Source: a virus. From it: a stretch of 35,672 nt of DNA. Positions 17,690-35,672 of this stretch are shown here, piece by piece (the first letter of the stretch is position 1; every line of letters starts with the position of its first letter). The notes under the pieces are model-generated. The model searched no databases. It was given only the letters and a program-made list of their open reading frames with translations, and had not been told where the DNA came from. The stretch covers positions 1 through 35,672 of IMG/VR virus record IMGVR_UViG_3300025910_000023. One strand, written 5' to 3'. The position numbers and the translations under genes were made by a program.

Positions 17690-18196
17690 ATGCAGAACTA
17701 CAATCCGAGCTCCGCGAACTTTCCGACGACCATCCAGCTCCCCCAAGATGGCGTCGACAAGCGCAACGTGTCCACGTTTCGGCCCGGCATCGAGGCCGCG
17801 CTCGATATGGCAACCACGCTCAAGGAAGGGGTCGTGGTCTTCAATGGCGCAAAGAAGTTCGCCGGCGGGATTCAGCGCGCCGTGGCGCTCGGGCAGAATA
17901 ACACTGGAGACAAGTTCTTCAATGTCCACGAGATCTGCGACATGGGCGTCGCATTCGCGGGGGATATCGTTCTCAAGCTCAAGGAAACCGGTCCGGTCCC
18001 GCCGGATGGGGCCATCATGTATTTCGTTCGGGTTCGCAACGTGAACGGCTTCAAGGCCGACATCATAAGCGAGGATCTATCGGTACTGTGCACGTTCCCG
18101 GCGAGCACGAAATGCACGTGCGCGTGCTACTTCGACCTCAACGGCGGCGGACATTGGCGCATCCTGAACTTTAGCCCGGGGGTGACGGTCGCATGA
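17690..18196 (+). CDS. Hypothetical virion/fibre-linked protein
   Basis: The 168-residue protein starts at ATG with a four-base gap to the preceding stop. Visible features are a polar N-terminus (MQNYNPSSANFPTTIQLPQD), a helix, and a beta-rich C-terminus with cysteines (CTCACYFDLNGGGHWRILNF). It lies between the baseplate and the large fibre, which suggests an adaptor or head-fibre-like role. I do not recognise the family. Its stop overlaps the fibre ATG. Confidence 0.5.
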   Translation: MQNYNPSSANFPTTIQLPQDGVDKRNVSTFRPGIEAALDMATTLKEGVVVFNGAKKFAGGIQRAVALGQNNTGDKFFNVHEICDMGVAFAGDIVLKLKETGPVPPDGAIMYFVRVRNVNGFKADIISEDLSVLCTFPASTKCTCACYFDLNGGGHWRILNFSPGVTVA

Positions 18197-20061
18197 GCCT
18201 CGTTCACTACCTAGACGTCCTGTTCGGCGCGGGCATTTGGCAGAATGCCACCGTAGACGTCACGCAAGCCGGTAAGTACAATATCGTTGCTGGCGCGACC
18301 GCGACCTACAATTCCGCGACCGGCGCGGTGGATCTCACGTTCACGGCCGCCGACGGCGGTGCGTCGCTCGGGGTCGCGGACCTCGCGGCGCTCCGGGCGA
18401 TCGGCCCGAGCTCGCGCGCGGACAAGCAAAGCCGCAACGTCAAGAGCGACGGGAACGGGAACCCGGCGGCCTACTTCTTCGACACGGGTTTCGGCGCCGG
18501 CGTGGCCGACGACGGCGTGAACTTGATCAAGCCGACCGACCTGTCCGTCGGGTCCGCCGGCCGGTGGCGCCGCAACCCGCAGATCACGACCGGCGCCACG
18601 CCGGACACGTACGTAGGGCGCGACGCGAACGGCATCATCCAGTCGATCAAGTCCGCAATCGGCGCAGCCTTGATCGTGGGCGAGCAGCTGCGCAACTCGT
18701 CGGCCGCCGGCGCCGGCGCGCAGCAATACTCGCCAGCGTTTGAGTTCTCGGGGTCCGGGTGGTCCACCGGTGCGAGCGCCGCGCGCGCCCTCGATTGGTC
18801 CGTGCAGCAACGCGCGACGCAGGGCGCGGAGCCGACGAACGAGCTCCACTTCCTCGCACAAGCGGCGGGCGGGGGCTGGGTGGACGGCCCGCGGTACGAG
18901 TACTCGGTCGCGGGCGGGAGCGGGCTCAAGTGGGGCGCGGCGGCGGGCGCCGTCGCGATCGGCCAGGACCCGGCGACGTCGGGCGCCGGGGCGGCGTGGT
19001 CGCTCCGGGGGCAGAAAGGGTTTACGGGTTCCGTCGGTGGCGCGCTCACGATCGGCGGCGGGGACGGCGGCACGCCGGGGACGAATCTCGCCGGTGACAC
19101 GAACGTAGAGCTAGGGCAGACGGTCACCAGCAACTCGGCGGCATTCAACTTGAAGGCCGCGGGGTCCACGTTCGGGCGGCTGTCGAGCAACGGATCCCTG
19201 CTCATTGAATCGGTGGCACAGGCGCTGACACTATCCAGCGCGGGGCAGCTGACGATCCAGTCTCCCGCCGGGCTCACACAGATTGAGGCTACCGGCGACC
19301 TCTACCTGAGTTCCCTCCAAGCGTCGCCCAAGTTCCACTTCCGGGGCAGCGGAGATAACGAGGTCCGGACCGAGACCCTGCCGCATACCGGCGCCTGTAC
19401 AGTCACGTACGCGATTGGCGTCACATCGGTCACTTGTTCCCAGGCCGACCAGACCGCGGGCAGCACGAATGGCGCGCAGCACACGTACCGCGCCCAGAAC
19501 GCCACCGGCGCAACGAGCACTGGCGGCAAGGCGACGCTACAAGGCGGCGGCGGCACGACCGCCGGCGGCGCCGCGGAGCTCACCGGCGGATCCGGGATCA
19601 CCAACGGGAATGGTGGGAACGCCACGATATCCGGCGGGGTCAAGGCCGGCTCTGGTGTCGACGGCAACGTCGATCTCAAGACGGGCTCCACGTCGAGGCT
19701 ATTGGTCCAGCCTACCCTCGTCCAGGTGCTGGCGTCGCAATTCCAGCAAGTCAAGGCGGGGCCTACCAATTCGACGAGCAACTACACGTTCGATTGCACG
19801 TTGGGCAACATCCACGAAGTTACGATGGTCGGCAACATTACGGCCCTGAACTTCGGCACACCGAAGACGGGTGCCGTGTACGTGTTCGTGTTCATCCAGG
19901 ATGGCACCGGCTCGCGCACGCTCAGCGTCCCCACCAACCTCAAGGTCGCGGGGGGCGCGTTCACCCTAACGACCACGGCGGGCAAGTATGACATGCTCAC
20001 CTGCTACTACGACGGCACCAACATGCGCGAGACCTGCCGCGCAATGAATGTGAGCGCCTGA
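18193..20061 (+). CDS. Tail fibre protein
   Basis: The 622-residue protein starts at an ATGA overlap. Its Gly-rich low-complexity stretches (GGGTTAGGAAELTGGSG then ITNGNGGNATISGG), many Ser/Thr and a compact C-terminal region ending KYDMLTCYYDGTNMRETCRA are typical of trimeric tail fibres. The N-terminus, which should bind the baseplate, has VHYLDVLFGAGIWQN. The C-terminal ~110 residues may be the receptor-binding knob. No enzyme motif is seen. It likely pairs with the tailspike at 20061 for host recognition. Confidence 0.7.
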   Translation: MSLVHYLDVLFGAGIWQNATVDVTQAGKYNIVAGATATYNSATGAVDLTFTAADGGASLGVADLAALRAIGPSSRADKQSRNVKSDGNGNPAAYFFDTGFGAGVADDGVNLIKPTDLSVGSAGRWRRNPQITTGATPDTYVGRDANGIIQSIKSAIGAALIVGEQLRNSSAAGAGAQQYSPAFEFSGSGWSTGASAARALDWSVQQRATQGAEPTNELHFLAQAAGGGWVDGPRYEYSVAGGSGLKWGAAAGAVAIGQDPATSGAGAAWSLRGQKGFTGSVGGALTIGGGDGGTPGTNLAGDTNVELGQTVTSNSAAFNLKAAGSTFGRLSSNGSLLIESVAQALTLSSAGQLTIQSPAGLTQIEATGDLYLSSLQASPKFHFRGSGDNEVRTETLPHTGACTVTYAIGVTSVTCSQADQTAGSTNGAQHTYRAQNATGATSTGGKATLQGGGGTTAGGAAELTGGSGITNGNGGNATISGGVKAGSGVDGNVDLKTGSTSRLLVQPTLVQVLASQFQQVKAGPTNSTSNYTFDCTLGNIHEVTMVGNITALNFGTPKTGAVYVFVFIQDGTGSRTLSVPTNLKVAGGAFTLTTTAGKYDMLTCYYDGTNMRETCRAMNVSA

Positions 20062-22637
20062 TGATCGAGCTCCTGGACACCGTAGCGATCGGGGACGTCG
20101 TGTCCGCCGCCGCGGCGCTGAACGGAATCGTGTCCGTCGAGCGCGCGACTCCGACGGCCCTCGCGACCGACTACCTCGGCTATGGCATCGTCACGGCCGC
20201 CGGGACCCGCGGGACCCCGGGCGTCGTCCAGACCTTCACGACGCCCGGGAATGGGATTCCCGCAGCGACTACGGGCCTCGCCTCGAATGCCAACGGCTCG
20301 TTGCGCATCGGGGCGAATGCGAAGCTGGAACTAGTCTCCGCGCTCGCACCCGGCGACTATCCGGCGGGGTCGGTGGTCAACGGGGTCACCTACCTCGACT
20401 TCCGGACGCGCGTGGTTTCTGGCGGCGCTACGGATCCGAATGACCTAGTGATCCTCCCCGGCGCCAACCGCGCCGCCGCAACGAACGCAGCCATCGTCGT
20501 CGCAAACGCCGCGTGGCTTGTCGACGGGATTCAGCGGACGGTGCGCTACCTCGCGGGGCGCTACGAATGGGAGACGGCCGTTCTACTCAAGAGCGGTGTA
20601 GCTCTCGTTGGCGCCGACGACTGGCACACGCGCGTGTTCTGGACCGGCGCTACGCCGAGCGTCGGGCTAGCCGACGACCCGACAAACGCGCCCATGCTGG
20701 CGCGCGCGACGATCGCGGGGAGCGACTTCACGACGACGACGGCGACCTGCTACACGGACGAGACCACGCTAACGACGTCGGCCGCCCCGACCGTCGGCGC
20801 GTGGTACCTGCTCCGCTCGACTAGCGCTCAGGCTGGCTACGACGGGTTTAACTTCGGCGTCGACATCGTTCGCGGCGAGCCCGTGAGGGTCAAGACGGTG
20901 ACGGGCTCGGGCCCGTACACGGTGACCCTCTATTCGCCGATCGAGCAGGTGCACGGCTCCGGGTCCGGCCTGCGGGTCATGACGCCCCTCGAGAGGGTCA
21001 CGGTCCGCGGGATCGACTTCCGCCATGAGGGCGGAGCGCATGCGGCTGGTCTGTTTGCCGAGGGCGTCCTCGATCTGCATGTCGACCTCGCCGGCGCGGG
21101 CTTCTCGCGCGGTCCCCTGAGCGGCCGGTACTGCCACACGATCACAGGCCGCGTGCACAACCGGGGCGAGAACAACTCACCGGTCGACCTCGTCTCCTGC
21201 CACAACACGTCGGTCATACACACGTACGACCCGCTCACGACGCTCGCGTTCGCGCATGCCAATGGGATCCCGAGGGGCGTGCACTTCGCCGGCGCATGCA
21301 TGCGGACGCGGATCCTCGGGGCCATCGGCCACTGCGTCGGGCTCGAGATCAAGGGGGCCTGCGAGGCGGTGCTCGACGTCTCGTTGGAACACTGCGACTT
21401 CACCGAGAGGTCGAACCGCGACCCCAACCTGTTCGTCGGCGCCGGCGGCGCCAAGGTCGGCGGCGTCCTGATGAATTGCTCGAACCCGTCGAGCTCGGAA
21501 AACGAGGTCCCGTATTCCGTCTCCGGCAAGGTGCGGCTCCTCGATTGTCGCGTACCGGATCCGTCGACGAATACACTCCAGTTCGGGGCGCTGTTCACGG
21601 ATACAGTGAAATTCGACTTCGAGTCGATCGAATTTGTCAACGACGGGAAGAACCCCAACACCAGCGGATCAAAGTGCATCGGGCTCGGTCTCTACGACAC
21701 GGCGGCGTACGATTCGATCCGGTTCCAGCGCCTTTCGTTCATCGGCATCGAGGCGGCGATTACTCTCTACGGCGGCGGCAACCGCGCGGAGTTCGGGCGT
21801 GTGGAGTACACCGCGAACGCTGCGCTGTTCTCGGGATCGGTCTTCCTCAACTTCGGACACTCGGCGGCCGGTATCTACCCCGTGCGGATTCGACACCTCG
21901 TCATGAACGACCAGCCCGGCCACTTCGCCGCGGACCACGCTGGGACGACTGGCGTCAATCACGACTCGCTGCGCGACATCGTGATCGACAAGCTCGAGAT
22001 CACGAACGGCGGCACCTATGAGGACGTTCGCTTCTGCCTCGATGTCTCGGGCCTCGCCGACTACGCCGGGCAGGCGGGCGACGTCTCGGAGATCTGTCCG
22101 CCGCGCGCCTGCACGTTGGTCAACGCCACGGACACGTTCGCGCTCACCGGTCACGACATGCCGGCCGGGACCCCGGGCCACCTGGGCGGCACAGAGCTCC
22201 CGACCGCCTCGGGCGGATACAACGCCGGCGACATCCTCTACGTGATCGCGTCAGGCCTCACCGCGAACGACTTCAAGCTCTCGCGCACGCTCGGCGGCGC
22301 AACGGTTGACTGGACCAGCAACGGCACCGCGCTGACGTTCGCGCCATCGTACCGCACGGTTCGCGCTGCGACGGGCGGTGCATCGTTCGACAAGGGCGCC
22401 AAGGTGAATGGGGTGGGCTTCGGTCTCGGCGTCGCCGTCCCAGTGCGCCACTACGCCGTCGCATTCGGGAAGAAGAAGCTGGTCCGGATGGGCGCTGTCC
22501 AGGTGCTCAACGGCGACCGTGTAAAGGCGACGCCGGCGACGCTGACGGGCACGGTCGACAATGCCTCTACGGATCCGCTCGGCTTCGCGCGTGGGAAGCC
22601 CAGCGCCGCGGCCGGCACGGTCCAGGTCGACAAGTGA
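20061..22637 (+). CDS. Tailspike with beta-helix, pectate-lyase-like
   Basis: The 858-residue protein starts at an ATG overlapping the previous stop. Residues ~130-230 carry the common phage tailspike entry: repeated NDLVILPGANRAAATNAAIV, then TVRYLAGRYEWETAVLLKSG. This gives way to short repeating beta strands (VTVRGIDFRHEGGAHAAGLF; DLVSCHNTSVIHTYDPLT) through about residue 690, as in right-handed parallel beta-helices. The C-terminal region is beta-rich. Such proteins bind and often cut surface polysaccharide; catalytic residues cannot be named from the sequence. It is the last virion gene before the lysis cassette. Confidence 0.75.
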   Translation: MIELLDTVAIGDVVSAAAALNGIVSVERATPTALATDYLGYGIVTAAGTRGTPGVVQTFTTPGNGIPAATTGLASNANGSLRIGANAKLELVSALAPGDYPAGSVVNGVTYLDFRTRVVSGGATDPNDLVILPGANRAAATNAAIVVANAAWLVDGIQRTVRYLAGRYEWETAVLLKSGVALVGADDWHTRVFWTGATPSVGLADDPTNAPMLARATIAGSDFTTTTATCYTDETTLTTSAAPTVGAWYLLRSTSAQAGYDGFNFGVDIVRGEPVRVKTVTGSGPYTVTLYSPIEQVHGSGSGLRVMTPLERVTVRGIDFRHEGGAHAAGLFAEGVLDLHVDLAGAGFSRGPLSGRYCHTITGRVHNRGENNSPVDLVSCHNTSVIHTYDPLTTLAFAHANGIPRGVHFAGACMRTRILGAIGHCVGLEIKGACEAVLDVSLEHCDFTERSNRDPNLFVGAGGAKVGGVLMNCSNPSSSENEVPYSVSGKVRLLDCRVPDPSTNTLQFGALFTDTVKFDFESIEFVNDGKNPNTSGSKCIGLGLYDTAAYDSIRFQRLSFIGIEAAITLYGGGNRAEFGRVEYTANAALFSGSVFLNFGHSAAGIYPVRIRHLVMNDQPGHFAADHAGTTGVNHDSLRDIVIDKLEITNGGTYEDVRFCLDVSGLADYAGQAGDVSEICPPRACTLVNATDTFALTGHDMPAGTPGHLGGTELPTASGGYNAGDILYVIASGLTANDFKLSRTLGGATVDWTSNGTALTFAPSYRTVRAATGGASFDKGAKVNGVGFGLGVAVPVRHYAVAFGKKKLVRMGAVQVLNGDRVKATPATLTGTVDNASTDPLGFARGKPSAAAGTVQVDK

Positions 22638-22647
22638 GGAGCATCCT

Positions 22648-22881
22648 ATGAATTGGCAATCCGTAATCGTTGACGTCGCGGTGCTCGCGACCGCATGCGT
22701 CCTCTGGTACCTCAAGGCGCCGGAGGCGATCGTGTACCTCCTCATCGGCGCGGTTTGCGGCGGGCGCCTCGCCTTGCAGAAGCCCCCGAGCGGGCCTGGT
22801 GGTGGGGCGCTCGGAGCATCCGGCGCAGGCGCCATCTTCCTGGGTGCACTTGGGCTCCTGCACCGCTCGGGACAATCTTGA
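22648..22881 (+). CDS. Putative holin
   Basis: The 77-residue protein starts at ATG with GAGGAG upstream. It has two hydrophobic segments, SVIVDVAVLATACVLWYLKA (about 5-24) and AIVYLLIGAVCGGRLALQ (about 27-45), and a third hydrophobic Gly/Ala stretch near the C-terminus. Small size, membrane segments and position at the head of the lysis cassette fit a holin, which opens the inner membrane at lysis time. No family signature is decisive. A TTG-initiated gene overlaps its stop. Confidence 0.6.
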   Translation: MNWQSVIVDVAVLATACVLWYLKAPEAIVYLLIGAVCGGRLALQKPPSGPGGGALGASGAGAIFLGALGLLHRSGQS

Positions 22882-23270
22882 GGCGGACGTTGTTCGCCGG
22901 GCTCCTCGCCCTGGCCGGGTGCCAGGCCGCGCTCGACGGCGCGATCAAGACCGCGAGCTACTACGCCGCGGCCGGGGTCGCTGCGGAGCGGGAGCTGTCC
23001 CGCGTGTGCCTCGAGGCCGTGGATCAGCACGTTGACGACGGGGCCGGCCCCGCCGACGTCGAGTCTCGCGTGCGCGCGGTCCTCGCGCAATGCGATCACG
23101 CCTGGGCCCTCCACGACGTCTACGCCGCGGAGCTTGACGTGTTGATCGCCCTCCTCGAGGCGGGCAAGGCGTCGGACGCCCCCGATCTCGCGGCCATCGC
23201 CACCGCGGGTGAGCGCGTCGAGCGCGCCCTCCGCGCGTTCAAGGCCGCCGCGGCCGTGGTGACTGGATGA
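22878..23270 (+). CDS. Predicted lipoprotein, possible spanin-like
   Basis: The 130-residue protein starts at TTG 22878 (TTGA overlap). The N-terminus MRRTLFAGLLALAGC is a lipoprotein signal with lipobox LAGC, cysteine at 15. The rest is helical and charged (SYYAAAGVAAERELSRVCLE; LDVLIALLEAGKASDAPDL). Next to a holin this could be an outer-membrane spanin component, but it is longer than typical Rz1 and not proline-rich. The role in lysis is inferred from context. An ATGA overlap leads into a 45-residue proline-rich gene. Confidence 0.6.
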   Translation: MRRTLFAGLLALAGCQAALDGAIKTASYYAAAGVAAERELSRVCLEAVDQHVDDGAGPADVESRVRAVLAQCDHAWALHDVYAAELDVLIALLEAGKASDAPDLAAIATAGERVERALRAFKAAAAVVTG

Positions 23271-23404
23271 CGGACGCGATCGTCGCGCTCGTCCTTCGCT
23301 TGCTCGATCGAATCTTCCCGCCGCCCCCGCCGATTCCCCCGCCCGCTCCACCGTCCGGTCGTGACCGCGTGCACCGTCACGCGGAGGACAGGTTACGCAA
23401 ATGA
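23267..23404 (+). CDS. 45-residue proline-rich small protein
   Basis: A short gene between two ATGA overlaps (start in the lipoprotein stop, stop in the protease ATG) encodes an N-terminal amphipathic segment MTDAIVALVLRLLDRIF followed by PPPPPIPPPAPPSG and a basic tail ending HAEDRLRK. The double coupling argues that it is real. It may be a membrane-associated lysis accessory; a proline-rich linker is known in Rz1 proteins, but here there is no lipobox. The family is unknown. Confidence 0.5.
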   Translation: MTDAIVALVLRLLDRIFPPPPPIPPPAPPSGRDRVHRHAEDRLRK

Positions 23405-24147
23405 GATATCTCGCCCTGCTCGTGGTCCTGCTCTCTTCGTGCTGCGGGACCTTCGAGCCCAGCCACATTCGGCCCCTGATCAACGCGGCGTCGAATGCGA
23501 CGGCCGAGCTCGTGGAAAAGCGCGCCGACGGGACCTATCGGCCGTTTTGCTCGGCAGTATGGGTATCGAGGGACGAAATGGTCACGGCCGCGCATTGCGT
23601 CGATCCGCACGAGGACACGATCGACACGTGCATGGCCGCGCCCGATCCCGTGGCGTGCATTCTCGCGCTTGGCGCCATCCTGGACAAGTCCCCGATCGGG
23701 ATGACCGTGAACTATTCCACGTGGAGTGACGCCCTGCTCGCGGGCTTCGAATCCCCGACGGTCGCGCGCGAGGCGAAGGTCACGCGCTACGACCGCGCGA
23801 AGGACCTCGCGGTGCTCCGGACCGTGAATCGATCGGACCACGGCATCGCGCCGATCTCTAAGGTCGACCCGCAGCCCGGCGATCCCGTCCACGTCATGGG
23901 GCACACGCTCGGGTTCCCGTGGAGCTACTCGCCCGGCGTGGTCGGGGCGGTGCGCTCGACCATGAACCCGAACGACGACCTCGTGCACGTCGTACAGGTG
24001 TTCTCGGCAGCGTCCTTCGGCAACTCCGGCGGCGGGCTGTTCAACGACGCCGGCGAGTTGATCGGGGTGTGCTCCTTCCTCCTCGAGCGAGCTCCCATGA
24101 TCTCGTTCTTCATTCACCGCGATGTCGTAGAGGCCTTCGTCCAATGA
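23401..24147 (+). CDS. Trypsin-like serine protease lipoprotein
   Basis: The 248-residue protein has a signal with lipobox LLSSC (cysteine 14) and a chymotrypsin-fold protease. The catalytic triad is visible: His65 in VTAAHC, Asp135 in AKDLAVL and Ser209 in SFGNSGGGL. C50 and C66 could form the disulfide around the His loop. HVMGHTLGFPWSYSPGVVGA is the typical pre-serine region. It should act in the periplasm or be tethered to an envelope membrane. No PDZ domain is present, unlike HtrA/DegP. Placement inside the lysis cassette with overlapping ATGAs suggests envelope degradation during release or control of another lysis protein (inference). This is unusual for a phage. Confidence 0.85.
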   Translation: MRYLALLVVLLSSCCGTFEPSHIRPLINAASNATAELVEKRADGTYRPFCSAVWVSRDEMVTAAHCVDPHEDTIDTCMAAPDPVACILALGAILDKSPIGMTVNYSTWSDALLAGFESPTVAREAKVTRYDRAKDLAVLRTVNRSDHGIAPISKVDPQPGDPVHVMGHTLGFPWSYSPGVVGAVRSTMNPNDDLVHVVQVFSAASFGNSGGGLFNDAGELIGVCSFLLERAPMISFFIHRDVVEAFVQ

Positions 24148-25385
24148 CGCTCCGTTGCGTCCAAGCCGGGCGCGGCGAGCCGCGGCCCGCGGTCTTCCTG
24201 TTCCTCGACGGCCCCGGCGGCGATGCCGACCACGACGGGATCGGGGATCAGGACGAGAAACTGATCGCCGCCCTCGGGCCGGAGCCCTGCATCGTCGCGG
24301 ACGATTCGGCCAAAGGGGCGGAATCGATGTCCTCGCTCCTGGCCTATGCCCGCCGCGCCGGCGGGTTCAGCGACCCCGCGGGCTATGCGCTCGTTGGCTA
24401 CTCGATGGGGGTGCAACGCGTCCGCGCGCTTCTCGTCACCGGCGCCGATCCGATGGCAACGGTGTGCATCGATGGCACCCATGCGAGCAAGCCGCCGGTC
24501 CCGTGGCAGATCGACGTGTGGCGCGAGCTCGCGGCGGAGGCCCGGCGTGGTGAGCGGCTGTTCGTCGCGACCTGCACGCTACAGCGGTACGTCGAGCGCC
24601 TTTCCCCGGGGGCGTACACCTCGACCTCACGCGTGCTCGCGGCGGCGCTCGATGCATCGATCTTCGAGACCATGAAGGCGGCGCGGAAGCCCCTCATCGG
24701 CTACCCCGGTGTTCCCGTCGCGGCGATTCACGAAGGCGCCCTGCATGCGTACGCCTATGCCTCGACCAATTGCGATCACGGCGCCCACCTAGCCCAGGGC
24801 CGCGATGTCCTCCCTGCCATGCTCGCGGAGCATGTGCGCGCGGCGATCGTCACGCTCCGCCCGCCGGCGCCCCCGCCCGAGCCCGTGCATAACGAGCCCT
24901 GGGCGCCGCTCGCGGAGCGTTGCGTCCTCTGGTGTGAGAACGAGATGGCGCGGGGCATCCGCGAGGAACCGCCGGGCTCGAACACCTCCGAGCGGATCCG
25001 GGAGTACCTCGCGCCATGCGTCCGCCGCGCGACGGGGCTCCTCCTCGGGCTCCGCGCGGGCGCATGGTGCGCCGCCGCGCAGAGCTGCGCGCAGCGGGAG
25101 TGCCTCGCGCCCGGGGAGCAGACTCGCCACGGCTACCGCGCCGCGGTGTCGGAGATCGTCGAGGACGCGAAGCAGCAAGGCACGTTCCGAGATCGGGCCT
25201 ACCGCCCGAAGCGAGGAGACCTGATGATCCGAACGCGAGAGGGCGGGTTGCACGTCGCGCGGGTTCGCACGGAGCCGCTCCCGGATGGGTCATTCACGAC
25301 CATCGCCGGGAATGAGAGCGATCGTTGGTCGGTGTCGGCAATGAAGCTCACCGATCCGCGGATCGTCGGTTGGGTGGTCTATTGA
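24144..25385 (+). CDS. Alpha/beta-hydrolase-cysteine peptidase fusion (endolysin candidate)
   Basis: The 413-residue protein starts at ATG in an ATGA overlap. Residues 10-235 look like an alpha/beta-hydrolase: nucleophile elbow GYSMG (Ser87), a possible acid in CIDGTHAS (D110), and a candidate His in NCDHGAHLAQGRD (H212 or H215). After a proline-rich linker (PPAPPPEP), residues 252-413 resemble the CHAP/TIGR02594-type peptidase: GIREEPPGSNTSERIREYLA, then AWCAAAQS with Cys309, GDLMIRTREGGLHVARV with His370 and TIAGNES with Asn390. The C-terminal part likely cuts peptidoglycan. The N-terminal part could hydrolyse an ester or lipid in the envelope. No signal peptide is seen, so export would need the holin. 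Confidence 0.75.
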   Translation: MTLRCVQAGRGEPRPAVFLFLDGPGGDADHDGIGDQDEKLIAALGPEPCIVADDSAKGAESMSSLLAYARRAGGFSDPAGYALVGYSMGVQRVRALLVTGADPMATVCIDGTHASKPPVPWQIDVWRELAAEARRGERLFVATCTLQRYVERLSPGAYTSTSRVLAAALDASIFETMKAARKPLIGYPGVPVAAIHEGALHAYAYASTNCDHGAHLAQGRDVLPAMLAEHVRAAIVTLRPPAPPPEPVHNEPWAPLAERCVLWCENEMARGIREEPPGSNTSERIREYLAPCVRRATGLLLGLRAGAWCAAAQSCAQRECLAPGEQTRHGYRAAVSEIVEDAKQQGTFRDRAYRPKRGDLMIRTREGGLHVARVRTEPLPDGSFTTIAGNESDRWSVSAMKLTDPRIVGWVVY

Positions 25386-26119
25386 GGACGCGACGCTTCG
25401 CGGTCGCGGTCGCGAGCGATCTCCACGTCGGGTCAATCTACTGTCGAACCAAGGCGATCCGGGACTTCATAGACACCGCATACGAGCGCGGGATCCGGAA
25501 CGTGCTCATGCCCGGTGACAACCTCGACGGCGAGTACGAGAACCACGGCCGGTACGAGCAAACCCACGTTGGCGTCACGAAGCAGACCCGGGCGTTCCGG
25601 TCGGTCCTGCCGCAACGCAAGGGACTGCGATACGACGCGATCCTAGGCAACCACGAGCACACGTTCCACGAATCGTCAGGGCTAGACGTTGCCGACTACA
25701 TTAATACGCAATTCCGCGCGGCGGGCCGGAAGGACCTCACGGTACACGGGGCGCGTGAGGCGTTCCTCCGCGTCCACGGGATCGATATCTGCCTCTGGCA
25801 TCCGCGCGGGTCGTTCTCACAGCTCGCGATGCGGAAGCAACTCCGCGGGCTCGCGCCCGGGCTCGCCCCGCGGTTCATGTTCACGGGACACTGGCACGTG
25901 TTCGACCGCGTGCGTGAAGGCCGGTGCGAGGCGTTTGCGTGCCGCTCGTTCCAGGGTGGTGGCGGCGATTTCGGGAATAGCCTCCCCGGCGCAACGACCG
26001 TGGGCGGGCTGATCGTTTCGTGGGCCGTCGACGGACACGGTGAACCCCACTCAATCCACGTCGAGTGTCACGACTACCCCGAGCCCGTTGCGGATCCGGT
26101 CGTGGAGATCACCGCTTGA
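25382..26119 (+). CDS. Calcineurin-like metallophosphoesterase
   Basis: The 245-residue protein starts at TTG (TTGA overlap). The metal-binding motifs are complete: SDLHVG (D13, H15), GDNLDG (D46), GNHEHTF (N90, H91), a WHPRGS block and GHWHVF near the C-terminal third. This is the binuclear metallophosphoesterase fold acting on phosphomono- or diesters, nucleotides or nucleic acids. The substrate cannot be inferred. Phages carry such enzymes in nucleotide metabolism, RNA repair or counter-defence. Here it lies inside the lysis cassette, between the endolysin candidate and an acetyltransferase-like gene. Confidence 0.8.
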   Translation: MRTRRFAVAVASDLHVGSIYCRTKAIRDFIDTAYERGIRNVLMPGDNLDGEYENHGRYEQTHVGVTKQTRAFRSVLPQRKGLRYDAILGNHEHTFHESSGLDVADYINTQFRAAGRKDLTVHGAREAFLRVHGIDICLWHPRGSFSQLAMRKQLRGLAPGLAPRFMFTGHWHVFDRVREGRCEAFACRSFQGGGGDFGNSLPGATTVGGLIVSWAVDGHGEPHSIHVECHDYPEPVADPVVEITA

Positions 26120-26607
26120 CGCTGCACGCCTGCCCCATGACCCGAGACCAGGCAAACGCCTACATCGTGGCGCATCATCGCCACCACGGACGTGTGACCG
26201 GTCACCGGTTCATCATCGGCGCGGAGCTCGGCGGGGCCCTCGTGGGCGTAGTGGTCGGGGGCCGGCCCCGTGCGCGGCTCGTGGAACAGTACCGCCACGT
26301 GGAGGTGTCCCGACTCTGCTCAGCCGGGGCGGACAACGTGTGCTCGTTCCTCTACTCGCGTGCGGCTCGGGTCGCGCGAGAGATGGGATTCGCGTCGGTG
26401 TTCACCGCCATCCTGGCGAGCGAGACCGGCGGCAGCTTGCGCGCGGCGGGCTGGATGTATGCGTACACGACCCGCGGCGGATCGCAGGACCGTCCTAGCC
26501 GTCGCCGGGTAGACAAGTCCCCGATTGAACCGAAACAGATCTGGTGTCCGGTCTGGTGTCTCGATGTCGTGCGCGGTCACAACGCAACGCAGGCGGCGCT
26601 CTCTTGA
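26116..26607 (+). CDS. XF1762-like protein, possible GNAT fold
   Basis: The 163-residue frame begins at TTG (TTGA overlap). An ATG seven codons on (26137) gives a 156-residue protein with the XF1762-like pattern: ANAYIVAHHRHHGRVTGHRF, a beta strand VGVVVGGRPRARLV, then VSRLCSAGADNVCSFLYSRA and ETGGSLRAAGW. These phage and prophage proteins resemble N-acetyltransferases (GNAT) in topology, and Mu Mom, which modifies DNA, belongs to that broader fold. No substrate is shown here. Neighbours suggest a role in phage-host interaction rather than assembly. Family recall is moderate. Confidence 0.55.
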   Translation: MTLHACPMTRDQANAYIVAHHRHHGRVTGHRFIIGAELGGALVGVVVGGRPRARLVEQYRHVEVSRLCSAGADNVCSFLYSRAARVAREMGFASVFTAILASETGGSLRAAGWMYAYTTRGGSQDRPSRRRVDKSPIEPKQIWCPVWCLDVVRGHNATQAALS

Positions 26608-27128
26608 CCTCCGTCCTCGACCGCCTGATCGACCTACTCCTCGCCGCGTGGCGTTGGCTCGTCCCTTGGGCGGTGCTGGCGGACGATCAGGTCGGGTTGA
26701 TTCGCCGCCTAGGCGTCACGCATCGGATCATGCGCCGGGGCTGGAACTGGAAGCTCCCCATCGTCGAGGAAGCCCTCGAGGTCTGCTCGGCGCTCGACAG
26801 CACGGCCCTACGGGAACAGTCCCTGACGACGATCGACGGCGCCCAGGTAACCCTACGATGCGTCCTGACGTACCGGGTAGTGGACCCGAAGCTTTGGATC
26901 ATCGAAGTCGAGACGCCGCAAACGGTGCTGAACGACGCCGGATGCCTGGCCGTCTCGGAGCTCGTGTCCGAGCTGAACGCGGACGAGGTTCTCCAGGGCC
27001 CCGAGTTCCTGATCAAGCTCGCGCGCCGCGTCCGCGCTCGCGGCCGGCGGTTCGGTATCGAGGTCCTGTCCGTCGGGTTGGCCGATCGCACGACGGCCCC
27101 GACGATCCGGCTCCTCGGGAAGGACTGA
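26604..27128 (+). CDS. SPFH/band-7 domain protein
   Basis: The 174-residue protein starts at TTG (TTGA overlap). A short hydrophobic N-terminus (LIDLLLAAWRWLVPWAVLAD) is followed by the SPFH core: VGLIRRLGVTHRIMRRGWNW, KLPIVEEA, then LREQSLTTIDGAQVTLRCVL with TYRVVDPK. This is the band-7 pattern of membrane scaffold proteins such as stomatins and HflK/C. It lacks the long C-terminal coiled coil of those proteins. It may sit at the inner membrane and organise or guard it, possibly regulating lysis or protecting against host proteases (inference). A second lipoprotein-like frame begins at its stop. Confidence 0.7.
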   Translation: MTSVLDRLIDLLLAAWRWLVPWAVLADDQVGLIRRLGVTHRIMRRGWNWKLPIVEEALEVCSALDSTALREQSLTTIDGAQVTLRCVLTYRVVDPKLWIIEVETPQTVLNDAGCLAVSELVSELNADEVLQGPEFLIKLARRVRARGRRFGIEVLSVGLADRTTAPTIRLLGKD

Positions 27129-27283
27129 TCGGAGTCCTACCCCTGCTATTGCTCACGGCCTGCGGCGACGCCGCCGCGGCGCATACGCCTGTACAGGGCT
27201 TCGAGCGGGAACGCGAGCTGTTTCGCGGGGTTGTGAGGAATCGACCGACCGGACCTTGCGCCCGGGGATACCAATGTGTATAG
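27125..27283 (+). CDS. Short lipoprotein-like frame, CTG or degraded start
   Basis: A 52-codon frame overlaps the SPFH stop as CTGA. It reads LIGVLPLLLLTACGDAAAAH, a lipobox (LTAC), then TPVQGFERERELFRGVVRNR and a Cys-rich end (CARGYQC). There is no ATG, GTG or TTG suited to the signal peptide. The first possible start is CTG 27125, so initiation is uncertain. The sequence around 27143-27203 is about 80% identical (49 of 61 by hand) to 27864-27924, the start of the lipoprotein at 27849. So it is either a duplicate with a non-standard start or a decayed copy. Confidence 0.4.
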   Translation: MIGVLPLLLLTACGDAAAAHTPVQGFERERELFRGVVRNRPTGPCARGYQCV

Positions 27284-27324
27284 ATATCCCGTGACGGCAG
27301 GGAGCCGTTGAGGAGGATGCGGGG

Positions 27325-27588
27325 ATGGCGAAGATGGTGAGCCGCGACAGCGCGCGGGCGGAACTGGTGAGACAGTGCGAGATGATAACGGTGCGTGGCG
27401 CCCAACGATCATTCTCGGACGCCTACTACGACTGGAGGCGCACCGACGCTCAATCGGAGCTCCACCACCTGCGCTCGGAGCTCTGCGCCATCGCGCTGAC
27501 GGGCGGTTACTGTGGCGACGGGGCGACGGCGCACGAACGCATCCTTGCCGCTCGCGCGGCCGTCGCTGCCCTGGACGAGTGTTGGTGA
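27325..27588 (+). CDS. Hypothetical protein
   Basis: The 87-residue protein starts at ATG with AGGAGG eight bases upstream, a strong ribosome-binding site. It is charged and helical (ARAELVRQCEMITVRGAQRS, LHHLRSELCAIALTGGYCGD). No family is recognised. It is coupled by one base to the ribbon-helix-helix-like gene at 27588, so the pair may be a small regulatory unit. A role within the cassette is not visible. Confidence 0.6.
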   Translation: MAKMVSRDSARAELVRQCEMITVRGAQRSFSDAYYDWRRTDAQSELHHLRSELCAIALTGGYCGDGATAHERILAARAAVAALDECW

Positions 27589-27806
27589 TGCCCCGCACCA
27601 AGCTCCCCGCGCTCGCCCGTCGCGTCCGCGTCGACGTCACGCTGTCGCAGGCGACAATCGCCGTGCTGGACGCGCTGGTCGCCGCCGGGCATGCCCCGAC
27701 GCGCTCGGCGGCCGTCGAGGCGGCGGTGATGGCCTTTTTCGCCTCGGTGCCGCGACCGGGGGACGTCGCGCCGTCGAAGCGCGCCAAGACAAAAGTCACC
27801 CGATGA
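27588..27806 (+). CDS. Ribbon-helix-helix-like small regulator
   Basis: The 72-residue protein starts at ATG overlapping the previous stop by one base. It has a basic beta-strand-like start RRVRVDVTLSQATIAVLDAL followed by two helices (VAAGHAPTRSAAVEAAVMAF) and a basic tail. This strand-helix-helix pattern fits CopG/Arc-type DNA-binding proteins, which regulate plasmid, toxin-antitoxin or phage operons. It may autoregulate this small operon (inference). It could also be unrelated; the signature is short. Confidence 0.5.
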   Translation: MPRTKLPALARRVRVDVTLSQATIAVLDALVAAGHAPTRSAAVEAAVMAFFASVPRPGDVAPSKRAKTKVTR

Positions 27807-27848
27807 CGAGAACGCGAAGAGTGGCCGGTGTCGTGGTATAACGATCGC

Positions 27849-28337
27849 ATGAAGTATCTCGTCCTGCTCCTGCTCGTCGGATGTGGCGACGTCGCCGCGG
27901 CGCATGCGCCTGCACAGGGCTACGCGAGCTCCACGAGCGCCGCGGGCGGCGAGCCGGGCGCCGGGGGGCAGGGCGGGGAGCCGGGCACGGGCGGGGCTGC
28001 GGGGGCGTCCTCCTCGAGTGCCGGGGGGCAGGGCGGGGAGCCGGGCACGGGCGGTTCGGCCGGCTCCCCGCCGACCGGGCCCGTCGTGCTCGTGCGCTGC
28101 AACACGGACTTGGTGATCCCGGATCAGGATCCGACCCCGCAGCTCTACACCTGTTGCGACGTCGGAACGAACCCCGATTGCCCCTCGCCCTACTTCTACG
28201 CGATCACGTGGGCGGGCCCGAACACGGGAACGTGCCTCGGGGGGATCGGGCAGTCGAATGCGATCGCTTGCCCGCCCGGGACCGGATGTTGGGTCGACAA
28301 GGGCTCCGGTGGTTCGTACCTCGGGACGTGCGAGTAG
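27849..28337 (+). CDS. Gly-rich repeat lipoprotein
   Basis: The 162-residue protein starts at ATG 27849; the upstream in-frame GTG at 27828 would give a poorer signal. MKYLVLLLLVGC is a lipoprotein signal with cysteine 12. Then comes a Gly-rich region with GGQGGEPGTGG twice, and a C-terminal part rich in cysteines (LYTCCDVG, TGTCLGG, PGTGCWVD) that may be a disulfide-bonded extracellular domain. Such Gly-rich linkers after a lipobox are common in secreted proteins of Polyangiales, which supports the host inference. It may be displayed on the host surface (for example superinfection exclusion), but that is only a guess. Confidence 0.75.
   Translation: MKYLVLLLLVGCGDVAAAHAPAQGYASSTSAAGGEPGAGGQGGEPGTGGAAGASSSSAGGQGGEPGTGGSAGSPPTGPVVLVRCNTDLVIPDQDPTPQLYTCCDVGTNPDCPSPYFYAITWAGPNTGTCLGGIGQSNAIACPPGTGCWVDKGSGGSYLGTCE
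27960..28054 (+). repeat. Direct 35-bp repeat in lipoprotein linker
   Basis: A 35-base unit is identical at 27960-27994 and 28020-28054, with a 60-base period. It encodes GGQGGEPGTGG. The identity is exact, so it is a recent duplication or under recombination. Confidence 0.9.
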
Positions 28338-34607: not shown

Positions 34608-35455
34608 CTACTCCGCGTCGTCCCTGACGACCGCCGCCGCTTGTCTCCGCAAGTTCGGGTTCAAGTACATCGCCGGCCTCGAGGAGCCCTCGGGTCCGGC
34701 CGCGGCATTCGGCACGGAGTTCCACGCCCGCCGCGACCGGTATCTCCGCGGTGAGGAGGTGCCCGACCTCGAGCGGGAGGGACTCGAATACCTCCCCGCG
34801 CCGAACACGCCCGGTCTCGAGATCGAGCGCGAATTCGGCATCGTGATCCGCGGCGTGTGGTTCACGGGAAGAAAGGACTTCGAGCTCCCCGGCATCGTCG
34901 GGGACCATAAGACCGGGACCGAGTTCCGCTACACGCCCGGGAAGCTGAAGAAGGACTGGCAAGCGAACCTATACGCCGCGGAGTCGATGCACCGCGCGGG
35001 TGGCGCGCCGGCCGTGGAGTTACATTGGATCTGCTACCGCCGCGCATGCCCCCCCGATTGCGGTCGAAGGCATGTGGAGCATTACACGGAGCCCGCCGCG
35101 AAACCCGTCGTCGTCACGGTCACGCGCGCCGACGTCGCGCCCGTGATCGAGGAAATGCACGAACTCGCGTCGATCCTCGCGGTCCTCGAGGACGCCGGGG
35201 CCGAACCGCTCGACCTGCCGCCGTCGCCCGCCGCTTGCGATGACTTCGGCGGATGTCCGTACATCGATCTGTGTCCGACCGTTGAAAGGCTTTTCCCTAT
35301 GGCCCAGACTCCCGAAGAAGTTCTCGCCGCGATTCGCGCGCGCAAGGGCGTTAACCCGCCCGCACCGCCGCCCGCGCCTACGTTGGTGCTCACGCCGGGG
35401 AATGGGGGCGCGCCTGGAACGCCCCCGCCGCCGAAGGCCCCGGAGTGGCAGGCGT
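34600..35455 (+). CDS. PD-(D/E)XK nuclease with Fe-S cysteines, 3' end lost
   Basis: The start is TTG 34600, eight bases inside the previous gene's end. The RecB/Cas4-like nuclease core is visible: GTEFHARRD (His42), GRKDFELPGIVGDHKTG with Asp93, Asp102 and Lys104, then QANLYAA (Gln121, Tyr125). The four-cysteine set C15, C213, C219 and C225 (CDDFGGCPYIDLC) would hold a 4Fe-4S cluster, as in Cas4 and AddB. It would cut or resect DNA ends, fitting phage recombination or replication. After about residue 285 the frame enters foreign antisense DNA, so the true C-terminus is missing here. Confidence 0.85.
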
Positions 35456-35672
35456 CCATGACCAGCAGCACCTGCTGGAAAAACGTGCCGATGAAGATGA
35501 TCAGCAGCTTCTGCACATCGCCGGTGCCCGCCCACAGGATGGTGAGCGGCACAAAGGCCACGACCGGCATGTAGCGGATGAAATCGACGAAGGGTTCAAT
35601 TGCTGCTTCCCAGCGGCGGTAGCTGCCGATGAGGATTCCAACGGGCAGCGCCACGATGGTGGAGATGAAGAA
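35451..35672 (-). CDS. ABC transporter permease fragment, NitT/TauT type
   Basis: Reading leftward from the window edge, the frame gives FFISTIVALPVGILIGSYRR, then AIEPFVDFIRYMPVVAFVPL, TILWAGTGDVQKLLIIFIGT and FFQQVLLVMD. This is the membrane core of SsuC/TauC/NrtB-type permeases for sulfonate, nitrate or taurine. It is a fragment open at the window edge and cut at about 35451. The DNA has visibly lower GC than the phage. It is not a phage gene; it is either contaminating/chimeric or host DNA next to a junction. Confidence 0.75.

What the first reader, a model, noticed from the sequence alone, without database searches (positions are those of the whole stretch)
22648..28337. Unusual multi-enzyme lysis/envelope cassette
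Between the tailspike and the leftward operon lie ten or more coupled genes: holin-like, lipoprotein, proline-rich peptide, trypsin-like lipoprotein protease, hydrolase-peptidase fusion, metallophosphoesterase, XF1762-like, SPFH, lipoproteins. Most are joined by NTGA overlaps from 22878 to 27128, so they are probably one functional unit. I know no described phage lysis system with this combination. It could be an adaptation to a complex myxobacterial envelope, or partly a superinfection-exclusion system.
Basis: partly seen in the sequence, partly recalled or inferred. Interest (0 to 1): 0.78.

Follow-up and report, generated by a model that had tools for sequence, protein, structure and literature searches.

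The report
Esterase–endolysin lysis cassette with accessory genes
The genes behind this phage's tail spike are a small conserved lysis set built around an unusual lysin (an esterase-type domain fused to a cell-wall-cutting domain), followed by unrelated passenger genes, so it is not one ten-gene envelope machine.

Summary
The genes exist as described. They lie in a temperate contractile-tailed phage whose relatives sit in Polyangia (Myxococcota). Eight consecutive 4-nt overlaps are confirmed, but such overlaps run through the whole phage and do not mark a functional unit. Comparison splits the cassette. Core: membrane protein (g1), lipoprotein (g2), small amphipathic/Pro-rich protein (g3), lysin (g5). 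This order recurs in viral contigs and a Polyangia prophage, although g1–g3 are recognised by architecture and position, not by significant sequence homology. Passengers: the trypsin-like lipoprotein (g4) lies beside the terminase in an intact related prophage; the XF1762/Mom-like gene (g7) has 80 examined viral relatives, none beside homologues of g4, g5 or g8; the metallophosphoesterase (g6) and HflK-like SPFH gene (g8) have no close relative in 317 Polyangia genomes. The novel part is g5: an α/β-hydrolase (esterase-like) domain without a Pfam family, fused to a CHAP/TIGR02594 endolysin. At least seven distinct loci carry such fusions, two with an added peptidoglycan-binding domain, two with a circularly permuted CHAP domain. 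Best reading: a holin-released bifunctional lysin, LysB-like plus LysA-like in one chain, for a Gram-negative host; substrate unknown. New variant of a known kind.

The parts
22648..22881 (+). g1: 77-aa membrane protein, holin candidate (core lysis set)
   Evidence: hydrophobic segments 3-24, 26-44, 54-71; similar small membrane ORFs in the same position in L123, L124, L125 and G275; no family match
22878..23270 (+). g2: 130-aa lipoprotein, helical, two further Cys (core lysis set)
   Evidence: TTG start in a TTGA overlap; lipobox LAGC; positional counterparts in L122-L125, G275, G001, L100; sequence homology to g2 not significant
23267..23404 (+). g3: 45-aa amphipathic helix + Pro-rich + charged tail (core lysis set)
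   Evidence: counterparts directly between lipoprotein and lysin in L122, L123, L125, G275; weak similarity from L123 to g3, 2.6e-4 in a database of eight sequences and Pro-biased
23401..24147 (+). g4: trypsin-like serine protease lipoprotein (accessory)
   Evidence: PF13365 1.4e-18; triad H65/D135/S209, lipobox LSSC; homologue in G275 prophage, 30% over 6-248, E 5e-27, beside the terminase genes
24144..25385 (+). g5: bifunctional lysin: alpha/beta-hydrolase (1-240) + CHAP/TIGR02594-like endolysin (about 259-413)
   Evidence: AF2 models and fold searches; invariant S87, D110, H215 and H370, N390; C309 in the WCAA motif; fusion orthologues L120-L125
25382..26119 (+). g6: calcineurin-like metallophosphoesterase, closest to phage DNA-repair-exonuclease family phrog_7339 (accessory)
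   Evidence: no relative at 1e-12 in 317 Polyangia genomes
26116..26607 (+). g7: XF1762/Mom-like GNAT-type DNA-modification protein (accessory, anti-restriction candidate)
   Evidence: NF045478 146.8 bits vs cutoff 50; phrog_1384 Mom-like 4e-25
26604..27128 (+). g8: short HflK-like SPFH/Band 7 protein (accessory)
   Evidence: PF01145 7.8e-15; PDB matches are HflK
27125..27283 (+). g9: short CTG-start lipoprotein-like ORF, probably a decayed duplicate of the g12 leader
   Evidence: 62-nt direct repeat, 81% identity
27325..27588 (+). g10: unknown 87-aa protein (separate group)
   Evidence: no family match
27585..27806 (+). g11: ribbon-helix-helix protein (separate group)
   Evidence: RHH_1 5.9e-5
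27849..28337 (+). g12: Gly/Ser-rich lipoprotein with Cys-rich C-terminus (accessory)
   Evidence: lipobox LVGC; Gly-rich Cys-containing ORFs also near the lysin in L122, L124, L100

Best explanation
g1-g2-g3-g5 are the phage's lysis genes; g4 and g6-g12 are accessory genes that share the late operon. Proposed mechanism: g5 has no export signal, so it accumulates in the cytoplasm until the g1 holin opens the inner membrane. Its CHAP domain then cuts peptidoglycan. Its N-terminal serine hydrolase cleaves an ester in the envelope (an acyl or acetyl ester on a wall-attached or outer-membrane component), doing in one chain what LysA plus LysB do in mycobacteriophages. g2 (lipoprotein) and g3 (small amphipathic/Pro-rich protein) are the best candidates for the outer-membrane step, in the role of spanins. 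g4 is a periplasm-facing lipoprotein protease that may help lysis but is not a fixed member. g7 (Mom-like) most likely modifies phage DNA against restriction. g8 (HflK-like) may influence FtsH or membrane state. Shown computationally: gene content, domains, folds, active-site conservation, conserved order. Inferred: enzyme activities, substrate, holin and spanin roles, timing.
For: Seven fusion rows in A4 keep S87, D110, H215, H370 and N390. The hydrolase domain folds confidently (pTM 0.84) as an alpha/beta hydrolase (VIA Z 13.2, 3.1 A, 169 residues vs esterase 3wyd). For the whole protein the best viral fold matches are CHAP, TIGR02594 and PlyB-like endolysins. L122/L123 orthologues carry PG_binding_1 (4.9e-15 / 2.3e-14) and CHAP. 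The hydrolase also stands next to a SpoIID wall-enzyme gene and is fused to GDSL + SpoIID in Polyangia. Order membrane protein - lipoprotein - small protein - lysin occurs in L123, L125 and the G275 prophage, where the lysin is an unrelated Rv2525c-PG_binding enzyme. g4 and g7 homologues lie elsewhere in G275; g7 relatives never neighbour g4, g5 or g8 homologues.
Against: No activity is shown. g1-g3 counterparts are matched mainly by architecture and position; g2 homology is not significant. In L124 the trio is about 4 kb from the lysin, in L120/L121 no such lipoprotein was seen, and L122 lacks an evident upstream holin. g3 of the window has no clear transmembrane segment. The assignment of D110 as catalytic acid is uncertain (E151 after the next strand is also invariant). 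The host is inferred from relatives.
Confidence: 0.68

Rival explanations
1. All ten or more genes form one co-adapted envelope-destruction unit.
For: Eight consecutive NTGA overlaps; several genes encode lipoproteins and several encode envelope enzymes.
Against: Overlaps are common throughout the phage. g4 and g7 homologues are elsewhere in G275. 0 of 80 viral g7 loci carry g4, g5 or g8 homologues and 1 of 80 a g6 homologue. No g6 or g8 relatives in 317 genomes at 1e-12 and 1e-10.
Confidence: 0.06
2. The hydrolase domain is not a LysB-like severing enzyme but a wall or slime tailoring esterase (for example an O-deacetylase) that only prepares the substrate for the CHAP domain.
For: Fold neighbours include acetyl-xylan and feruloyl esterases as well as Ag85 and lipases; it accompanies different wall-cutting enzymes (SpoIID, CHAP).
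Against: Nothing tested discriminates between the two; fold alone does not tell the substrate.
Confidence: 0.35
3. Some accessory genes (g4, g8, g9/g12 lipoproteins) are lysogenic-conversion or superinfection-exclusion genes.
For: Phage Cor lipoproteins encoded next to tail-fibre genes block receptors, and a phage-borne HflK/C-family gene is described (PMC4936722).
Against: They lie in the same orientation behind late tail genes; no sigma-70-type promoter was found in the region, although that scan does not cover other promoter types.
Confidence: 0.2
4. g2 and g3 form a two-component spanin with a long helical lipoprotein and a short inner-membrane partner.
For: Lipobox in g2; conserved adjacency of a lipoprotein and a small protein; L122/L123 g3 counterparts have a clear N-terminal hydrophobic helix and Pro-rich stretch.
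Against: Window g3 shows no clear transmembrane segment; sequence homology is weak.
Confidence: 0.35

Closest known systems
Mycobacteriophage LysB (mycolylarabinogalactan esterase, D29/Ms6 type)
   Same: alpha/beta-hydrolase with a GxSxG nucleophile in the lysis module; some LysB carry a PG-binding domain (PMC6116114), as L122/L123 do here
   Different: Here the hydrolase is fused N-terminal to the endolysin, has no Cutinase or PE-PPE Pfam match, and belongs to phages whose relatives sit in Gram-negative Polyangia
CHAP/TIGR02594/PlyB-like phage endolysins
   Same: Catalytic Cys/His/Asn pattern and fold match
   Different: Extra N-terminal serine-hydrolase domain; two relatives have the CHAP domain circularly permuted
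Lambda-type holin/endolysin/spanin cassette
   Same: Membrane protein, lysin without export signal, lipoprotein plus small protein next to the tail genes
   Different: The lipoprotein is the longer, helical partner; spanin identity unproven
XF1762/Mom-like family (NF045478, phrog_1384)
   Same: g7 scores well above the curated cutoff
   Different: Placed at the end of a late/lysis operon instead of the early DNA-metabolism regions where its inspected relatives lie
HflK/SPFH (PF01145)
   Same: SPFH domain aligned to HflK
   Different: 174 aa only, no long C-terminal region; below the HflK equivalog cutoff

Membership tests
Phage endolysin, CHAP/TIGR02594 type | Peptidoglycan-hydrolase domain with catalytic Cys, His, Asn | tested here: met
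   C309 in WCAA motif, H370, N390; fold match to CHAP/TIGR02594. The window protein itself is below Pfam (14.4 vs 26) and NCBIfam (19.5 vs 70.6) cutoffs; orthologue L120 passes Pfam CHAP (30.4 vs 26)
Phage endolysin, CHAP/TIGR02594 type | Holin-dependent: no signal peptide or SAR segment | tested here: met
   No N-terminal hydrophobic segment in the first 74 residues of g5
Phage endolysin, CHAP/TIGR02594 type | Lyses peptidoglycan | not testable with these tools
   Needs purified protein
LysB | alpha/beta-hydrolase fold with GxSxG nucleophile | tested here: met
LysB | Cutinase/PE-PPE family sequence | tested here: not met
   No such match for g5 at E 1; only E 0.26 for relative L125
LysB | Separate gene downstream of lysA | tested here: not met
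   Fused N-terminal to the endolysin domain
LysB | Mycolyl-ester hydrolysis in a mycolic-acid host | not testable with these tools
   Relatives sit in Polyangia, which are Gram-negative; activity needs assay
Holin | Small protein with one or more transmembrane segments in the lysis cassette | tested here: met
   g1, position
Holin | Timed inner-membrane permeabilisation | not testable with these tools
   Needs expression assay
Two-component spanin | Outer-membrane lipoprotein subunit (lipobox) | tested here: met
   g2 lipobox LAGC; outer-membrane sorting not tested
Two-component spanin | Inner-membrane partner with N-terminal TM helix | tested here: inconclusive
   No segment at threshold in window g3; clear segment in the L122/L123 counterparts
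XF1762/Mom-like | Score above curated model cutoff | tested here: met
   146.8 vs 50 bits
HflK | Equivalog model cutoff | tested here: not met
   48.7 vs 159.4 bits; SPFH domain itself met (55.8 vs 23.6)
Cor-type superinfection-exclusion lipoprotein | Blocks phage receptor in lysogens | not testable with these tools
   Only the precedent of lipoprotein genes near tail-fibre genes

The most novel reading that the evidence does not exclude
Polyangia phages use a single-chain LysB+LysA lysin whose hydrolase severs an ester link between the cell wall and the outer membrane, implying a covalent ester anchor in the myxobacterial envelope and an enzymatic alternative to spanins in Gram-negative hosts; in one sublineage the CHAP half has been circularly permuted.
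Probability: 0.22. Interest if true: 0.78.

Novelty: new variant of a known kind. Interest (0 to 1): 0.5.

Why it matters
Enzymes that deal with the outer membrane at phage lysis are well known from mycolic-acid hosts (LysB); Gram-negative phages are thought to use spanins. An esterase-type domain fused to an endolysin in phages of Polyangia suggests that these hosts have an ester-linked envelope component that must be cut, and it gives a directly testable enzyme. The circularly permuted CHAP domains are a clean natural example for papain-fold evolution. The comparison also shows how neighbouring overlapping genes can be mistaken for one functional unit.

Tried and rejected
Scans of viral contigs with g5, g7 and g8 as single sequences found no relative; alignment queries worked for g5 and g7. 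The whole-unit idea was tested by co-occurrence and rejected. g12-like Gly-rich lipoproteins near lysins (L122, L124, L100) are suggestive only, since g12 itself gave no significant match. Searches for g4 and g5 in 50,697 phage records gave no match; the L122 lysin matched there only through its PG-binding domain in the rows listed. Homology of g2 across phages by phmmer was not significant. D29 LysB was not in the rows of structures shown, which excludes nothing. Further Polyangia contigs with related terminases (G017, G021, G261) gave no window-like cassette by tblastn. Promoter and terminator scans were uninformative. Literature searches found no fused esterase-endolysin of a Gram-negative phage in the results listed; coverage is partial.

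Full report
What is there. The window is a 35,672-base IMG/VR virus record. It encodes a temperate phage with a contractile tail: terminase 225-1880, portal, head protease, major head protein, tail sheath, tape measure and baseplate genes, then large tail proteins at 18193-22637, followed by the cassette, a leftward integrase/excisionase block and an early region with a sigma factor and an exonuclease. Four-base overlaps are, however, normal in this phage (16 of 40 same-strand junctions in my own gene calls), so they show compact late transcription, not shared function.

Who the relatives are. The terminase has 16 viral relatives at 29-57% identity. Twelve also share the portal, and most of these also share head, sheath, tape-measure and baseplate genes. 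Bacterial contigs with the terminase include a Polyangiaceae MAG, a Myxococcales MAG and two delta-proteobacterium MAGs, plus one labelled Actinomycetota. None of the cassette genes has a tblastn match in the 15 related viral records, so the cassette region is fast-evolving and had to be studied by other routes.

The lysin g5. A search of 317 genomes of the class of the Polyangiaceae MAG found homologues of g5 in 10 genomes. Most hits cover only the N-terminal domain; that domain has no Pfam, NCBIfam or PDB sequence match. In several genomes it is a stand-alone gene next to a SpoIID-domain gene, in multi-copy clusters; in L098 it is fused to a GDSL lipase and SpoIID; in L099 it is fused to a CHAP domain. 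An alignment-based scan of viral contigs gave six more loci, L120-L125. All six have the hydrolase followed by a peptidoglycan-enzyme domain; L120 and L121 are close relatives of each other. L122 and L123 contain an additional PG_binding_1 domain, which strongly supports an endolysin. S87 (in GYSMG), D110, H215 and, in the second domain, H370 and N390 are invariant in the viral set; C309 is the Cys of the WCAA motif.

Fold. The AlphaFold2 model of the hydrolase domain is good (pLDDT 79.6, pTM 0.84) and matches esterases of the alpha/beta-hydrolase fold (Z 13.2, 3.1 A over 169 residues with 3wyd; Z about 11-12 with antigen 85, acetyl-xylan and feruloyl esterases, lipases and thioesterases). The full-length model (pLDDT 71.8) matches CHAP, TIGR02594 and PlyB-like phage endolysins in the viral library. 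No phage record in the INPHARED collection encodes a g5 relative by tblastn.

A circular permutation. In L125, and in L100 from genome G019, the CHAP domain is permuted: a profile of eight unpermuted domains matches L125 first at model positions 60-164 and then at 1-68, and L100 first at 70-163 and then at 4-68, so that the catalytic-Cys helix comes last. Circular permutation is known within the NlpC/P60-CHAP group (PMC10318531); I found no description for an endolysin of this type.

The core cassette. In L123 and L125 the lysin is directly preceded by a small membrane protein, a lipoprotein and a small amphipathic or Pro-rich protein; L122 has the last two, and L124 has the trio about 4 kb upstream. 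The intact G275 prophage, which shares terminase (48%), portal (53%), major head protein (56%) and the tail genes with the window, has after its tail genes a membrane/lipoprotein ORF, a 67-aa protein and a different lysin (Rv2525c-like plus PG_binding_1), joined by ATGA overlaps. So the slot is conserved and the lysin is exchangeable. Significant sequence homology of g2 is not demonstrable and that of g3 is weak and Pro-biased; the claim rests on order and architecture. Gene calls in relatives are from my own script.

The accessory genes. In G275 the trypsin-like lipoprotein homologue (30%, E 5e-27) lies just upstream of the terminase genes and is followed by a lipoprotein matrixin (PF00413 1.8e-6), while the Mom-like homologue lies 11 kb away on the other strand in the early region. 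Among 80 viral loci with g7 homologues (two at 68-69% identity), none carries a homologue of g4, g5 or g8 within about 4 kb and one carries a g6 homologue. g6 and g8 have no relative at 1e-12 and 1e-10 in 317 Polyangia genomes; an empty search of this kind is weak evidence. Family matches name their likely roles: phage DNA-repair exonuclease family for g6, XF1762/Mom-like DNA modification for g7, HflK-like SPFH for g8. g9 is probably a decayed copy of the g12 leader.

Verdict. What is new is the lysin: a fused esterase-type hydrolase and endolysin in a conserved holin/lipoprotein/small-protein cassette of phages whose relatives sit in Polyangia. It works like LysB plus LysA but is not a member of LysB by sequence or gene arrangement. 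Substrate, activity and the spanin role of g2/g3 are inferences that need the bench.

Noticed in passing
L125:8946-10148; L100:2720-4153 (-): CHAP domain of the lysin is circularly permuted in both, with the catalytic-Cys helix at the C-terminus.
   Followed up: partly
L129:660-1376 and 1373-1963 (G275:C1:40660-41963): Pair of phage-encoded lipoprotein proteases (trypsin-like and matrixin) next to the terminase; L150:5991-6515 has another lipoprotein with an HExxH-type motif near the end of its gene block.
   Followed up: partly
L035:853-1659 (-): Related phage G010 has a papain C1-family protein in the lysis slot.
   Followed up: no
L077-L096: Multi-copy clusters in a few Polyangia genomes: stand-alone hydrolase domain, SpoIID-domain gene and several families of unknown function.
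   Followed up: partly
G275:C1:62670-63056; G001:22129-22569; L100:4597-5256; G010:1656-2396: Membrane protein and lipobox lipoprotein occur as one ORF, possibly with an internal start for the lipoprotein.
   Followed up: no
window 35082-35672 (-): Fragment resembling an ABC-transporter permease (PF00528 5e-5, just below cutoff) overlapping the 3' end of the exonuclease gene: possible host junction or chimeric end.
   Followed up: no
window 27142-27203 and 27863-27924: 62-nt direct repeat (81%) of a lipoprotein leader; g9 looks like a decayed copy.
   Followed up: yes
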